DNA from: CAVPRW01 sp046727435 [NCBI: bacterium]
GTDB taxonomy: Bacteria; Tectomicrobia; Entotheonellia; J063
Direction of reading: 5' to 3'
Length of the DNA stretch: 7,378 bases
NCBI GenBank assembly: GCA_046727435.1
Contig: JBKPCR010000350.1
Span: 1 to 7,378, forward strand
Part shown: positions 1 through 7,378 of the stretch, in pieces
Layout: the number at the start of each line of letters is the position of its first letter
Numbering within the stretch: the first letter of the stretch is position 1
Program-made: the position numbers and the translations under genes
Notes under the pieces: model-generated
What the model saw: the letters and a program-made list of their open reading frames with translations, nothing else
What the model was told of the DNA's origin: nothing
Databases searched by the model: none

Positions 1-98
1 AGTCATCGATGAACGACCATCACCGCATTGGCCTTCCCCTAGTCCATGACATTGGTCGGGAATCTTGGAGAGCCATACTAGAGAAGGACCTATCATGA
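1..98 (+). CDS. 3' end of an unidentified gene, cut by the window start
   Basis: An open frame runs from the window edge (codon phase starting at base 3) to a TGA at 96-98. It encodes about 31 residues, ending in ...RESWRAILEKDLS. The TGA overlaps the ATG at 95 of the next frame as ATGA, the usual layout of translationally coupled neighbours. That overlap is the main reason to believe the frame is coding, because the fragment is too short and its third-position bias too mixed to judge otherwise. I do not recognise the family. An internal ATG lies at bases 9-11, so the true start could be there or left of the window. Confidence 0.35.
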   Translation, partial: SSMNDHHRIGLPLVHDIGRESWRAILEKDLS

Positions 99-253
99 AG
101 GTCGCGTATGTGTTTGCCTTGCCCCGGTCAGCCAGTTACAAGCTAGGACAGATAATCCTGCCGCAGCTCGAAGCGGGCACCCACGGCGTGAGCGCACCTG
201 GGCCTCGTTGCCGCTGCTCGGCAGAGGCTTCTACTACTTCCCCAAACGCCTAG
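95..253 (+). pseudogene. DsrE-like protein, N-terminal remnant
   Basis: The ATG at 95 sits behind GAGAAGGA (81-88), a reasonable ribosome-binding site. The first 32 residues begin MKVAYVFALPRSASYKLG and continue through ILPQLEAGTHGV (to base 190). From memory this closely resembles the N-terminus of small DsrE/DsrF-like (SaoD-type) proteins, which go on with a segment like VVGMFFFDDN. Here the downstream residues become Ser/Cys/Arg-rich and unlike the family, and the frame stops at 253 after 53 residues, where relatives have roughly 110-150. Family members are cytoplasmic proteins linked to sulfur-relay and sulfur-oxidation chemistry. The likely reading is a decayed gene truncated by an indel or deletion near base 190. 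Neither other frame after 190 gives a clear continuation. A sequencing error is possible but would explain only part of the loss. Confidence 0.5.
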
Positions 254-467: not shown

Positions 468-551
468 AAAGGATGTCCCAGATAGTTAGGGCAGCACTCT
501 CAATCATTGCGGTTGACGCCGGGGTGCAATCCTTCGCATGGGGGATGGGAG

Positions 552-1775
552 ATGGGAGCACAGGGGAGAGGTGGTCTGTACATCAGCCTGCCGGTGCTTG
601 TGCTGTTCGGGGTACTGTCTCTCTGGGGTCGCGAAGGGCTTGCGGCCACGGCTAAACCTTCCACGTATGTGGGATCGTTGCAGTGCCGGGAGTGTCACGA
701 CAAGATCTACGCTACCTGGCGGAAGACCATCCATGCTCAAGCCATCCAAGACGTCCACCAGAATCCCCGCGCCGTCCAAGGAGATTGGACCAAACCCTTC
801 GACGGGCGGACGTTTACCCCACAGGACGTGAAGTTGACCCACGGGGTCCAGTGGAAACAGCGGTACATCGATAACGACTGGCATATCCTGCCCGCGCAGT
901 GGAATTTCGATGACGAGAAATGGACGCCCACCCCGGATGCCCAGAAGTGGCGCGAGACCAACTGGATTAGCGAGTGTGCCCAGTGCCATGTGACCGGGTT
1001 CGACCCCGCGAAGCGTACCTGGAAGGAGCTGTCCGTCGGCTGTGAAGCCTGCCATGGTCCTGGGAGTGCCCACGTCGAGGCCAAACCGGCGGAGCGCTTT
1101 GGCACCATTGTCAACCCGGCCTCCCTACCGTTTGATTACGCCGCGTCCGTCTGTGGCCAGTGCCACGCGCGGGGCAAGAGCCCGGATGGTAAGTGGCCGC
1201 ATCCGATTGGCTTCCAGGTTGGCGATATCTTGACCACCGCGCACTTCCGCGTGGTGTCAAAGGAGGATCAGGCGGCGTGGTGGCCCGACGGCAGCGTCAA
1301 GCAGCACCGCCAACAATACCCGGAGTGGAAGGCCTCGAAGCACGCCAAAGCTGGCGTCACCTGCATCACCTGCCATAGCGTGCACGAGGCCCCCGGCAAG
1401 TTCGCCACGCGTTTGGCCCCGAATAACCTGTGTATCTCGTGCCATTCTAACGTCAGTACCGATTCCGTGACCGGGCATGCGCCCATCACCAATGCGCCCC
1501 AGCATAGCGACTGCATCGGCTGCCACATGGCGCCTACTGGGAAGAGCGGTGCGACACGGGGGGATGAGCGCGTCCATACCTTCAAGGTGGTCAAGCCCAG
1601 CGCCACCATCACGCTGGGCGGGGGGAGTGTGGACAAGCAGCCCAACGCGTGTAACAGCTGCCATTGGCATCAAGGGGATGCGCCGGAGAGGCTGCAACAG
1701 GCGTTGGAGGCGGGCCTCGCGTTCCGGTTCCAGCGCGAAGCGACGCAAGGTCCCACCTGGCAAGAGTCCAGATAA
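552..1775 (+). CDS. Exported octaheme c-type cytochrome (c554-like multiheme family)
   Basis: The protein has 407 residues from the ATG at 552. A longer frame from a TTG at 507 is open, but the ATG puts a normal Sec signal at the very N-terminus: an Arg-containing start, a hydrophobic core at about 9-25, and cleavage near GLA-AT (about 30). GGGGGA at 540-545 can serve as ribosome-binding site. Eight CXXCH heme sites are visible at 45-49, 142-146, 164-168, 201-205, 271-275, 294-298, 321-325 and 367-371. The segment YVGSLQCRECHDKIYATWR and the paired-motif layout match the cytochrome c554/doubled-CXXCH group of periplasmic multiheme proteins. Additional His residues outside the motifs could be distal ligands. 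The likely role is periplasmic electron transfer, or reduction/oxidation of a small N or S compound; the substrate cannot be told from sequence. Its TAA overlaps the ribosome-binding site of the NapC-like gene, so the two are probably co-translated. Confidence 0.9.
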   Translation: MGAQGRGGLYISLPVLVLFGVLSLWGREGLAATAKPSTYVGSLQCRECHDKIYATWRKTIHAQAIQDVHQNPRAVQGDWTKPFDGRTFTPQDVKLTHGVQWKQRYIDNDWHILPAQWNFDDEKWTPTPDAQKWRETNWISECAQCHVTGFDPAKRTWKELSVGCEACHGPGSAHVEAKPAERFGTIVNPASLPFDYAASVCGQCHARGKSPDGKWPHPIGFQVGDILTTAHFRVVSKEDQAAWWPDGSVKQHRQQYPEWKASKHAKAGVTCITCHSVHEAPGKFATRLAPNNLCISCHSNVSTDSVTGHAPITNAPQHSDCIGCHMAPTGKSGATRGDERVHTFKVVKPSATITLGGGSVDKQPNACNSCHWHQGDAPERLQQALEAGLAFRFQREATQGPTWQESR

Positions 1776-1779
1776 GGAG
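1774..1779 (+). promoter_or_regulatory. Ribosome-binding site of the NapC-like gene
   Basis: AAGGAG overlaps the TAA stop (1773-1775) of the octaheme cytochrome and sits eight bases before a GTG start at 1788. It fixes that start and implies translational coupling. Confidence 0.7.
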
Positions 1780-1787
1780 AGCCACCC

Positions 1788-2362
1788 GTGGCAAGGTTGG
1801 TGGTGGTGGGCCTGCTGCTCGCGGCCGTAGTCCTGGCCATTGTCATCGGCCTCGGCTGGGGGGTGATGGCGTATACATCGACGCCAGATTTTTGCAACAG
1901 CTGCCACGTCATGAACACCCGGTATGTGTCCTGGCAGCGGTCCCCGCATGGGGCGGCGGCCACCTGCATCGAGTGCCATTCGGAGCCCGGGTGGGGGGGG
2001 AGCTGAAAGCCCACCTCAACGGGGCGCGCTACCTCGTCGTCATGCTCACCGGAGAGATGTCCGGGCCATTGATTCGGGCCGAGGTCAGCGATGCGTCCTG
2101 CGTGCATTGTCATCCGCCCGAACACCTGCCGGAGACCGTGCGGAATCACCGGATTCTCCACGCAAAGCACATGAATATGGGGCTGCACTGCGCCGATTGT
2201 CACGCTGGTCTCGTGCATGGCACGCTGTATGGGGGGCAGACCCGGCCGGCGATGGCGCTCTGCGTCGACTGCCATGCGCGGCGAAGCCCGATCTTGGCGG
2301 GATGCCACACCTGTCACGTGCAACTGGCTGTCCCGGCGGCGGGCTTTCCCATCACACGCTGA
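1788..2362 (+). CDS. NapC/NrfH-like membrane cytochrome with six heme sites, frame broken at a G8 run
   Basis: The gene starts at GTG 1788. As written the frame stops at TGA 2004-2006 after 72 residues, but the protein continues in the -1 frame from base 2000 to TGA 2360-2362. Joining them by one extra G, or by a -1 slip at 1993-2000, gives 191 residues. Residues 4-26 form a single membrane anchor. CXXCH sites are at 36-40 (followed by xM), 60-64, 105-109 and 135-139, the last in CADCHAGLVHG, which resembles the fourth-heme motif of NapC/NrfH quinol dehydrogenases. Two further sites at 159-163 and 173-177 go beyond the usual four. Family role: oxidise membrane quinol and pass electrons to a periplasmic partner, here plausibly the octaheme cytochrome encoded just upstream. 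Both halves are well conserved, so the break is either an assembly error, a recent mutation, or real slippage. Confidence 0.8.
1993..2000 (+). repeat. Run of eight G at the frame break
   Basis: Eight consecutive G follow TGG-rich sequence inside the NapC-like gene. Reading ...TGG GGG GGG and slipping back one base gives GAG CTG AAA, which restores ELKAHLNGARY. Such runs are prone to sequencing or assembly miscounts, replication slippage, and polymerase or ribosome slippage. No clear stem-loop was identified just downstream. Confidence 0.75.
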
Positions 2363-2372
2363 GGTGGCGGTG

Positions 2373-3137
2373 ATGCATCTGTTCTATCGGGCAAGTGTCG
2401 GACGGGCGACGTGGGAAGGAATCTTGGTCGTGGCGGTGCTCTTCCCGCTCCACTTTCTCTTGGAGCGGCCACGTCCCTCCGTGGCGAGTAACCTCCTCAT
2501 CCTGTTCTTGTTCTTTGTGCCGCCGATCTGGACGGCGTTGCGTCTGCGGACGAGTCCACGGCCTGCTCCCTGGCATATCCTGGAGTATGCCCTGTTCGGG
2601 TTCCAACTGGGACTTTGGGCGGGCATGCTGGGGGGTGTCGAGCTTGTGTTGCTGAAAGTGGGGGCCGGCGAGCCGTTCCTCGTGCCGCTCGCCACCTGGA
2701 TCATGATCGCCTTCATCTTTGCTTGGGCATCGGGGACCGCCTATGCGGTCTTCGTGCTCATCCTCCGAGCGATTTTGGCATTGGGTCAGGACGCAGCACT
2801 CCCTTCCACGCTGATATTCCGTGGCAGCGTCACGCCTGACACACCATCGCTGAAGCGCGCCATCCTCTATAGCGTCATCCCAGGAATCGGGCATTATTAT
2901 CTCCACAGGTCCGGGCGGGGAGCCGCCTATTTAGGCGTGGCCTGTAGCGTGGCTCTGCTTGGGCTGTTCACCGGAACGGCCGCCGTCGTGCTGCTCGTCG
3001 AAGGGCGCGTGATGCCCACCCCCTACCTGATCGTTGCCGCGCTCCTCATCCTCAGTCCGGCGTTCCTCGCCATCGTGGCGGCCGTTGACGTGTACGTCAC
3101 GACCCACAATGCTCTGGGAAGCACCGCGCATAGCTGA
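2373..3137 (+). CDS. Polytopic membrane protein with a TM2-like C-terminal segment
   Basis: The chosen ATG at 2373 has GAGGTGG at 2361-2367 and begins only 10 bases after the NapC-like stop. An upstream extension to 2217 is open but merely shadows the cytochrome in another frame. The 254-residue product is strongly hydrophobic, with likely membrane segments near 16-31, 38-56, 72-95, 101-135 (one or two), 183-209 and 217-240. Residues 167-187 (SVIPGIGHYYLHRSGRGAAYL, given as key residues P170, G171, G173, H174, Y175, G181, G183) look like the Pro-Gly-hairpin core seen in TM2-type and related small membrane proteins. No heme motif or enzyme active site was seen. Its place after two cytochrome genes suggests a membrane partner of the electron-transfer unit, but the function is unknown. 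The N-terminal half is not recognised. Confidence 0.75.
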   Translation: MHLFYRASVGRATWEGILVVAVLFPLHFLLERPRPSVASNLLILFLFFVPPIWTALRLRTSPRPAPWHILEYALFGFQLGLWAGMLGGVELVLLKVGAGEPFLVPLATWIMIAFIFAWASGTAYAVFVLILRAILALGQDAALPSTLIFRGSVTPDTPSLKRAILYSVIPGIGHYYLHRSGRGAAYLGVACSVALLGLFTGTAAVVLLVEGRVMPTPYLIVAALLILSPAFLAIVAAVDVYVTTHNALGSTAHS

Positions 3138-4982: not shown

Positions 4983-5723
4983 TCAAGGTGCAACCGGACG
5001 CCTGCCTGTGAACAGGTCAACGCAAGCACCTTGCCGTCTGCGGATATTGGAAATCGGCCCGGTGTAGTGCCGTTCACCGCGCTGGGTGTGCCACACCGGC
5101 AGCCACGCCTCCCCTGTCGGATTGAAGCGTCGTGGGGCAATGGTGGGCAATGCCCCGGCAGCCGCCTTGTCCCGATATTCCCGATCGACGTCCAGCAATT
5201 CACCAACCGGCGGCTCGTCCGCGGCCTGCGCCGCATGGGTTCGTCCGCGTACCCGCCCAAGCCGGGCGGCGACCGAATCGATGATCCCGGCCAGCCGTTT
5301 CGGCCCGACGCCCGCCAGGTTCGCGAGGCGGCCATTGTAGGCGGACATCTCGAGATCTTCGAGTGTGTCGATGCCAAGGTCGTGATGCAGCCGTCGCGCC
5401 AGCACCTTGCCGACGCCAGGGACCGAGGCCAACAGCGCGACGGCATCGACCTCGCCGCGCAACCGCTCGAGCATCGGCAACCGGCCGCTGGTGACCAGCG
5501 TATGGATCGAGCGCGCTAAGCTGTCGCCGATGCCGGGAAGCTTATGAAGCCCTTCGATACCTTCCTTGTGTACGATCTCCATCAGGGAGGGTGGTAGTTG
5601 TCGTAAGGTGTCCGCCGCGTGCCGGTACGCCCGGATGCGGAAGGGGTTGGCGCCCTGCTCAGTGAGCAGCTCTGCGACTTCATCCAGACGGCGTGCGATC
5701 GCGACGTTCATCATTTCAACCAT
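4983..5723 (-). CDS. Helix-hairpin-helix DNA-binding protein, PolX N-terminal-like, without polymerase domain
   Basis: The start is uncertain: ATG 5723 gives 246 residues, while ATG 5714 or 5711 (MNVAIARRLDEVAELL) would match typical relatives as well; none has a strong ribosome-binding site. Residues 7-45 form the helical 8-kDa-like domain (ANPFRIRAYRHAADTLRQL). Three hairpin motifs follow: LPGIGDSLA (62-70), VPGVGKVLA (101-109) and LAGVGPKRL (136-144), as in the front part of DNA polymerase beta/PolX proteins. The nucleotidyltransferase and PHP nuclease domains of full PolX are absent. The C-terminal part contains LPTIAPRRFNPTGEAWLPVWHT (key residues P193, R198-F200, E205-P209), a block that I recall from short HhH proteins of this kind. 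The end from about 221 (GPISNIRRRQGACVDLFTGRR) looks shorter and altered compared with those. Likely role: DNA binding, perhaps repair; unproven. Confidence 0.85.
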   Translation of the reverse strand: MVEMMNVAIARRLDEVAELLTEQGANPFRIRAYRHAADTLRQLPPSLMEIVHKEGIEGLHKLPGIGDSLARSIHTLVTSGRLPMLERLRGEVDAVALLASVPGVGKVLARRLHHDLGIDTLEDLEMSAYNGRLANLAGVGPKRLAGIIDSVAARLGRVRGRTHAAQAADEPPVGELLDVDREYRDKAAAGALPTIAPRRFNPTGEAWLPVWHTQRGERHYTGPISNIRRRQGACVDLFTGRRPVAP

Positions 5724-5954
5724 GTGGCGGGCCAAGGCCGGTTCTGTCAGGGAGTTCGTATCATCCTAGCTGACTATCCGGCTATCCGTGTGGATGAGCA
5801 GGGCATCGCTAGTCTTGTGTGACAAAATGTCACAAAGAGTCGCACTATGTCCCATCGGAGCTTTGTACGGGCGCACGATGAAAGCATTCGTTTTAGTTAA
5901 TGAACCGACCATTACACCGCCCACGGCTGCAAGGGGCAACCACCTTCGGGGTCA
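5724..5954. other. Upstream region of the helix-hairpin-helix gene
   Basis: About 230 bases hold no credible gene. The region should contain the promoter of the minus-strand helix-hairpin-helix gene and includes the palindrome at 5818-5834. I could not place promoter boxes with confidence. Confidence 0.4.
5818..5834. promoter_or_regulatory. Operator-like palindrome TGTGACA-AAA-TGTCACA
   Basis: Seven perfect pairs flank a three-base AAA centre, about 95 bases upstream of the helix-hairpin-helix gene start (minus strand). The half-sites TGTGA/TCACA are those of CRP/FNR-family sites, but the spacing is seven bases rather than CRP's six. A TetR- or GntR-type site is equally possible. Its length and symmetry make chance less likely than for the other palindromes here. 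Confidence 0.5.
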
Positions 5955-6267
5955 TCACGCAGGTATGGGTTTGACTGGCCTCACCCTGTGTTTGAGGTAT
6001 CCCGCCGCCAGCAACTCCAACGGCCCCAGTTTCTGGAGGATTTCGGTGAGGATATATCCCGCAAAAGCTCGATCTGCTATAGGCTGGCGTGTTCGCCCGT
6101 GAAAGTACCACAAGCCTATGAACATGCTGGCATCGATAGCCCCCACGCCGCTGACACCGAGTCCAGCCGGAAGGAAAAGTCGGTCCCTCTACAGCACGCT
6201 GCAGCTCTCCCAGGAGCTCAGTCATCTCGCGTTCTAGGAGCAGACCCTCCTCGTACACCTCATTCAT
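5955..6267 (-). pseudogene. Small protein of unknown function, apparent frameshift
   Basis: ATG 6267 has AGGAGGAG placed about six bases upstream, an excellent start. The first 28 residues, beginning MNEVYEEGLLLEREMTELLG, look like a charged helix. After that the frame becomes Cys/Arg/Ser-rich and unnatural. The +1 frame is protein-like from about FLPAGLGVSGVGAIDAS, through SMFIGLWYF, RTRQPIADRAF and LGPLELLAAGYL, to TGA 5955-5957. Dropping one base near the TTTT at about 6176-6179 joins the two into one reading frame of 103 residues. I do not recognise the family. The composite would be a small protein with an N-terminal helix and a compact, partly hydrophobic core, possibly membrane-associated. 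The break is either a sequence error or a true inactivation. Confidence 0.5.
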
Positions 6268-6719
6268 TTGGGGCTCCTCCTCTCGCCACCATATCATCCT
6301 TAGCCATGCGGTGATGACTAGCGCTATCCCTCTCTTACGAAATCATGCAAGCGCCGTGCACGCCGCAGCCTCACCGAGGACAGGGGCTGCCCCCTGCTCG
6401 GCTGGCATGCAGTATGCTATGCCGTGGTTGTGAACCCAGTATATATTGACTCTGTTGGGTAACTCAGCCCCTTGTGGAGAACGGGCTTACAAACCACGTT
6501 CGAAAGCCAGAGACACCGAGTCCATGGTTCTGGTGACATGCACTCCCATGGCGTTGGCGATTGTCCCTCGTGACCACCTCCTGGACGTCTGTGCAGCGTG
6601 CAGCCGACGCACCCGAGGGGTGGAGGCAGGACCGAGCCGCGGAAGGAGATGAGAAATTTTACCTCTTGAGGGGTATCGCTGAAAAACAGCTAACATTTTG
6701 GTTTTGTTGACGTTTTTGC
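6268..6719. other. Gene-poor stretch before the oxidase promoter
   Basis: No supported gene was found. The frame at 6446-6652 (plus) has no ribosome-binding site and reads like noise. The long minus-strand frame over 6487-7356 runs opposite the oxidase start and is a GC-rich shadow. On the minus strand TATACT-like sequence occurs near 6440, a possible -10 box for the small gene starting at 6267, but no matching -35 box was found. AT-rich DNA at 6652-6720 leads into the promoter at 6720. Confidence 0.4.
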
Positions 6720-7065: not shown

Positions 7066-7378
7066 ATGATCAGCAGGCGAGCATTTTTGAAGGGCAGCGC
7101 CGTAGGCGCAGGGACGTTCCTGTTCACGAAGTTGGGCGTCATCCGGCGTGCCTTCCCCGCCATCCCGGGTGGGTCGCTGGACCCGACCACCATCCCCAAG
7201 TATGCGATGCCCCTGGTCATCCCGCCGGCCATGCCGAGAACAGGCAGGGTAGGCGCGGCTGACTACTACGAGATCGCCGTCCGGCAGTTTCCGCAGCAGA
7301 TCCTGCCGACCAGCATGCCCACGACGACCGTGTGGAGTTACGGCTCCGTCAATCATCCGGGGACGTTCAACTACCCCG
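7066..7378 (+). CDS. Multicopper oxidase (bilirubin oxidase/CotA-like), N-terminal part, cut by the window end
   Basis: ATG 7066 follows GGAG (7055-7058) at seven bases. The same frame is open upstream to about 6880, but this start puts the Tat motif SRRAFLK at residues 3-9, followed by a hydrophobic stretch (11-24), with cleavage perhaps near AFPA (29-32). Mature residues 39-60 (DPTTIPKYAMPLVIPPAMPRTG, key D39, P40, I43, P44, P49, P53-P54, P57) and ADYYEIAVRQFPQQILP with TTVWSYGSVNHPGTFNYP are highly typical of the first cupredoxin domain of bilirubin-oxidase/CotA-like enzymes. The copper-ligand HxH motifs would lie to the right of the window, so activity cannot be judged. Family role: four-copper oxidation of metals, phenols or pigments coupled to O2 reduction, in the periplasm after folding in the cytoplasm. 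Confidence 0.88.
   Translation, partial: MISRRAFLKGSAVGAGTFLFTKLGVIRRAFPAIPGGSLDPTTIPKYAMPLVIPPAMPRTGRVGAADYYEIAVRQFPQQILPTSMPTTTVWSYGSVNHPGTFNYP

What the first reader, a model, noticed from the sequence alone, without database searches (positions are those of the whole stretch)
1788..2362. NapC-like cytochrome gene split by a run of eight G: error, phase variation or programmed slippage
Seen: two halves with well-formed CXXCH motifs in adjacent frames, joined exactly at a G8 run. One extra G, or a -1 slip, restores one 191-residue protein. Both halves still look selected, which argues against old decay. Known: homopolymer runs cause both sequencing errors and real slippage (transcriptional, or phase variation). 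Inferred: if the break is real, production of the quinol-oxidising subunit could be adjustable.
Basis: partly seen in the sequence, partly recalled or inferred. Interest (0 to 1): 0.6.

Follow-up and report, generated by a model that had tools for sequence, protein, structure and literature searches.

The report
Cytochrome gene with miscounted G run
A bacterial gene for an electron-carrying membrane cytochrome is cut in two by a reading-frame break at a run of eight Gs, most likely because the run was miscounted or recently slipped in length, which is ordinary rather than a new control switch.

Summary
G8 lies at 1993-2000; the frame from GTG 1788 stops at TGA 2004-2006 (72 aa), and the continuation runs in the next frame to TGA 2360-2362. 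Read through, it is one 191-aa NapC/NirT-type protein with six CXXCH sites. PF03264 rises from 44.2 bits (first half) to 58.9 bits (read-through, across the junction). 42 loci (41 distinct) align across the junction in one frame without a stop; the closest, L022, L051 and L061, have no gap there in the one-extra-residue reading. None of the 42 has a G run above five there.

Signs of programming are weak: the downstream fold is no better than shuffles, and the all-G heptamer is not in the efficient-motif list I saw. Run length, register and one upstream GGAG are the only signs for it. The window's five G6 runs lie in open frames; only its longest run is out of register.

Best reading: wrong run length in the record (about 0.58), or a recent real indel (about 0.25). 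Without reads, a held genome or close orthologues these cannot be separated here.

The parts
1774..1779 (+). AAGGAG, ribosome-binding-like site, 8 bases before GTG 1788
   Evidence: sequence printed
1788..2006 (+). first half of the NapC/NirT-type gene: hydrophobic N-terminus, CNSCH, CIECH, ends at TGA 2004-2006
   Evidence: PF03264 at 44.2 bits, cut-off 24.1
1993..2000 (+). run of eight G at the frame change; 1994-2000 reads G_GGG_GGG in frame 0
1982..1985 (+). GGAG, SD-like, 8 bases before the all-G heptamer; the only upstream SD-like match found in 1951-1993, may be chance
2000..2362 (+). second half in the neighbouring frame: CVHCH, CADCH, CVDCH, CHTCH, ends at TGA 2360-2362
   Evidence: weak C7/NrfB-like matches below cut-off
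507..1775 (+). intact upstream gene, eight-CXXCH cytochrome (ORF as listed; true start not determined)
   Evidence: PF13435 at 63.5 bits, cut-off 20.8
2373..3137 (+). intact downstream gene, hydrophobic protein by eye; GAGGTGG 2361-2367 before its ATG overlaps the stop of the broken gene
   Evidence: DUF6677 match below its cut-off; sequence printed

Best explanation
In the organism this is one continuous gene for a NapC/NirT-type cytochrome with six heme sites, and the G run is recorded here at the wrong length (a homopolymer miscount in sequencing or assembly). Shown: the two halves belong to one domain and the break sits at the window's longest homopolymer. Inferred: that the fault lies in the record and not in the DNA. 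As a working protein it would be held in the inner membrane by its N-terminal helix and pass electrons through periplasmic hemes to a partner, perhaps the eight-heme cytochrome encoded just upstream (inference from family and gene order).
For: Domain crosses the junction: PF03264 44.2 bits to profile position 73 for the first half, 58.9 bits to position 100 for the read-through; TIGR03153 56.4 to 66.9 bits. 42 of 65 loci given to tblastn align across the junction region, none with a stop in the aligned stretch. No gap at the junction in L022, L051, L061. Only the longest G run is out of register; five G6 runs lie in open frames. The GeneTack survey expects unclustered, BLASTp-confirmed frameshifts to be sequencing errors rather than indels (PMC3711429, passages).
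Against: No reads were seen, so error and true indel are not separated. Five other genes of the window are open over their length, so the record is not poor in general, although two further gene remnants or splits are suspected in the flanks. 14 of 42 loci score slightly better with the two-fewer-bases reading.
Confidence: 0.58

Rival explanations
1. A real, recent one-base indel in the G run has broken the gene in this strain; the gene is a young pseudogene.
For: Homopolymer runs are mutable as well as hard to read; there are no other stops in either half, as expected of a young break; gene remnants are suspected elsewhere in the window (94-190, 5955-6297 minus, by eye).
Against: Six CXXCH sites, codon use and ribosome-binding-like site are all still there, but a young break predicts that too, so it hardly counts.
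Confidence: 0.25
2. Phase variation: the run length changes reversibly between cells, switching the cytochrome on and off.
For: G/C runs serve this in some genes (PMC3711429, passages, names poly-C/poly-G in type III methyltransferase genes); the break sits in a long G run.
Against: None of 42 relative loci has a G run above five at the junction, so there is no sign of a kept switch, though these relatives are distant; most phase-variable proteins are said to be exposed to the environment (same paper).
Confidence: 0.08
3. Programmed -1 ribosomal frameshifting or RNA polymerase slippage at the G run joins the halves at a set rate, giving a short diheme and a full hexaheme form.
For: G_GGG_GGG is in register with a stop 3 bases further on; GGAG lies 8 bases upstream; polymerase slippage sites are often homopolymers of eight or more (PMC3711429, passages), and other nucleotides than A/T are allowed for in PMC1088944 (passages).
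Against: Downstream RNA folds like its shuffles, z -0.27 (2001-2090) and +0.68 (2006-2066). In E. coli the lowest heptamer value quoted is G_GG.G_GG.U, and the list of efficient motifs includes all-C but not all-G (PMC4066793, passages; the value for the all-G heptamer itself was not seen). Known polymerase slippage is mostly at A or T runs. None of the 42 loci shares the run.
Confidence: 0.06
4. Two separate genes, the second translated by coupling or by initiation at the G run.
For: GGGGGAG looks like a ribosome-binding site; in the E. coli study G_GG.G constructs probably gave low-level initiation downstream (PMC4066793, passages).
Against: After a CTG at 2003 the first start codon in the second frame is ATG 2042, inside the conserved region; the longer ORF of that frame starts at TTG 1664 within the upstream gene; no export signal is visible by eye in the second half, and c-type heme attachment needs export (general knowledge); one domain crosses the junction.
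Confidence: 0.02

Closest known systems
Frameshifts at homopolymers in prokaryotic genes (GeneTack survey, PMC3711429)
   Same: break at a homopolymer, a Pfam domain across the break, no relative with the same break among 42 loci
   Different: nothing seen here sets it apart; only distant relatives were available
NrfH, menaquinol-linked subunit of cytochrome c nitrite reductase (PDB 2j7a; TIGR03153)
   Same: N-terminal membrane helix, first hemes, read-through covers model positions 5-138 of 138 and aligns with 2j7a over residues 3-148
   Different: 66.9 bits against a cut-off of 134.2; six CXXCH sites rather than four; His and Tyr opposite Lys82 and Asp89
NapC/NirT protein of a Selenomonas ruminantium plasmid (L022 2279-2806, beside a molybdopterin oxidoreductase gene)
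   Same: 28% identity over the junction in one piece, no gap at the junction
   Different: 175 codons in one frame, different neighbours

Membership tests
NapC/NirT cytochrome c family (PF03264) | score above Pfam's gathering cut-off | tested here: met
   44.2 bits for the first half, 58.9 for the read-through; cut-off 24.1
NrfH (TIGR03153 equivalog) | score above the curated cut-off | tested here: not met
   66.9 of 134.2 bits
NrfH (TIGR03153 equivalog) | menaquinol-site Lys82 and Asp89 (as named in PMC4683180, passages) | tested here: inconclusive
   His and Tyr stand opposite in the one alignment seen, which is weak there
napC_nirT subfamily (TIGR02161) | score above the curated cut-off | tested here: not met
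   28.3 of 310.6 bits
programmed -1 frameshift gene | slippery motif in register | tested here: met
   G_GGG_GGG 1994-2000, stop at 2004
programmed -1 frameshift gene | stimulatory structure downstream | tested here: not met
   z -0.27 and +0.68; pseudoknots not modelled
programmed -1 frameshift gene | upstream SD-like stimulator | tested here: inconclusive
   one GGAG at 1982-1985, in G-rich coding sequence
programmed -1 frameshift gene | site kept in relatives | tested here: not met
   no G run above five and no stop in 42 loci; all distant
phase-variable gene | run length differs between cells or isolates | not testable with these tools
   no reads, no isolates; no whole genome held

The most novel reading that the evidence does not exclude
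The eight G are real and fixed, and a slip at the run makes a set ratio of a short diheme membrane anchor and the full hexaheme cytochrome: a programmed frameshift in a respiratory c-type cytochrome, of which I know no example (recall; one search found no paper with both of its terms, and the capped listings show no such title).
Probability: 0.05. Interest if true: 0.6.

Novelty: already known. Interest (0 to 1): 0.12.

Why it matters
It matters mainly for annotation: the gene should be called as one NapC/NirT-type cytochrome with a doubtful run length, not as two small proteins or a regulated switch. Only reads that prove eight G in the DNA would reopen the question of slippage or phase variation.

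Tried and rejected
Close orthologues were sought and not found. The one genome-contig scan gave 53 pattern matches and 2 loci, both weak multiheme matches. Three viral-contig scans gave no relative. Plasmid tblastn of the second half gave none at 1e-5; with the limit at 10, 7 records, of which one (Selenomonas, 1e-4) is below 1e-3; the read-through found 4 records at 1e-5. The genome search reached only the groups of G001 (82 genomes) and G002 (7 genomes), whose kinship to the window is unknown: second half, 38 of 82 genomes with a match, the best at 1.3e-7; PF03264, 68 of 82 and 5 of 7. So the comparison rests on distant relatives.

Also tried: Rfam, no match at the gathering score; tRNA genes, none. 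The designed protein 7on7 outscored NrfH for the first half in the PDB search but not for the read-through; I take it as chance similarity of repeats. A second suspected split gene at 5955-6297 (minus) and a fragment at 94-190 could not be confirmed: no Pfam match, no plasmid match, and for the former no match in 82 genomes. The organism was not identified. Paper searches on nanopore and metagenome homopolymer errors gave one paper each, seen only as listings and not used. Passages of PMC5009743, PMC3475470 and PMC9415397 added nothing to the case.

Rejected: two coupled genes (and the domain). Old pseudogene: no other disabling change, but one search shows that this is weak.

Full report
Observation. 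The window holds a run of eight G at 1993-2000, its only homopolymer of eight or more. The frame opened by GTG 1788, with AAGGAG eight bases before it, ends at TGA 2004-2006 after 72 residues; the sequence goes on in the neighbouring frame to TGA 2360-2362. The first half carries a hydrophobic N-terminus and CNSCH and CIECH; the second carries CVHCH, CADCH, CVDCH and CHTCH. A codon model trained on five other window genes supports the first frame before, and the second frame after, the bin 1956-2015; the 12 best switch points that I printed are 1976-1987, 6-17 bases before the run, with nearly equal scores, and the score at the run was not printed. A run of eight or more G or C appeared in 27%, 39% and 51% of simulated windows under three models, so the run alone is not rare.

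One gene. The first half alone matches PF03264 at 44.2 bits up to profile position 73; the read-through matches at 58.9 bits up to position 100. TIGR03153 rises from 56.4 to 66.9 bits and is then covered to its end. NrfH of PDB 2j7a aligns along residues 3-148. I gave 65 of the 66 loci then held (E. coli L024 left out) to tblastn with two read-through versions; 42 loci have an alignment over the junction at E up to 1e-3, and none has a stop in it. L022 and L025 are the same place; 41 junction segments are distinct. The closest distinct loci are the Selenomonas NapC/NirT protein (L022, 91.3 bits), L051 (82.8) and L061 (67.4); none has a gap at the junction, while many weaker relatives have gaps nearby (27 alignments printed). 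The one-extra-residue version beats the two-fewer-bases version at 24 of 42 loci, loses at 14 and ties at 4; in the 12 best that one search lists, the first loss is seventh. For L022, L051 and L061, sliding the downstream residues by one to three places lowers the score each time, although for L061 even the unslid score is negative.

Is anything programmed? For: G_GGG_GGG lies in register, a stop follows at once, GGAG sits 8 bases upstream, and polymerase slippage sites are often homopolymers of eight or more (PMC3711429, passages). Against: the downstream RNA folds like its shuffles (z -0.27 for 2001-2090, +0.68 for 2006-2066). In the E. coli motif study the lowest heptamer value quoted is for G_GG.G_GG.U without stimulator, and the list of efficient motifs has all-C but not all-G (PMC4066793, passages; I did not see the value for the all-G heptamer). 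The polymerase-slippage work whose passages I read concerns A and T runs, while allowing for others (PMC1088944). In 42 loci no G run above five lies within about 25 bases of the junction; one locus (L047) has a C7. The five G6 runs of the window (1558, 1620, 1858, 2231, 2630) lie inside open frames, so only the longest run is out of register, as length-dependent miscounting or mutation would give.

Error or mutation? The GeneTack survey expects unclustered frameshifts confirmed by protein similarity to be sequencing errors rather than genuine indels (PMC3711429, passages). Five other genes of the window are open over their length, so the record is not poor in general; but two suspected remnants or splits in the flanks (94-190; 5955-6297 minus) would speak for decay or for further errors, and neither could be confirmed. 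The absence of other stops dates the break only loosely: 2.7% of single changes would make a stop, so at 0.1 neutral substitutions per site there is a 22% chance of none. I give 0.58 to an error in the record, 0.25 to a recent real indel, 0.08 to phase variation, 0.06 to programmed slippage and 0.02 to two genes.

What the protein would do. It belongs to the NapC/NirT family by PF03264, but not to NrfH by the curated cut-off (66.9 of 134.2 bits). NrfH Lys82 and Asp89 (PMC4683180, passages) fall opposite His and Tyr, so quinol oxidation is plausible by family but not shown. Upstream is an eight-CXXCH protein with a cytochrome c554 domain (PF13435), a plausible partner. Downstream, 2373-3137 is an open, hydrophobic protein whose ribosome-binding-like GAGGTGG overlaps the stop of the broken gene, so an early stop could also lower its translation (inference).

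Limits. No genome is held for the window, the organism is unknown, and only distant relatives were found; the absence of the run in them says little about close kin.

Noticed in passing
window 507-1775 (+): The eight-CXXCH cytochrome resembles the N-terminal part of longer proteins annotated as tetratricopeptide repeat or multiheme proteins on Rhizobium and Methylosinus plasmids (27-28% identity) but is itself only 422 aa.
   Followed up: no
window 5955-6297 (-): Two ORFs in adjacent frames read, by eye, like one protein split by a frame change; no Pfam match, no plasmid relative, no match in 82 genomes (second piece only).
   Followed up: partly
window 94-190 (+): A short stretch MKVAYVFALPRSASYKLGQIILPQLEAGTHGV looks (recall only) like the start of a DsrE-type protein that then breaks off; no Pfam match, no plasmid match.
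   Followed up: partly
window 4983-5735 (-): A 250-aa protein matches only the N-terminal helix-hairpin-helix part of PolX (profile positions 5-146 of 571; HHH domains), without the polymerase part.
   Followed up: no
window 7066-7378 (+): Start of a gene with a twin-arginine signal (weak match), cut by the window end; by recall it resembles a multicopper oxidase.
   Followed up: no
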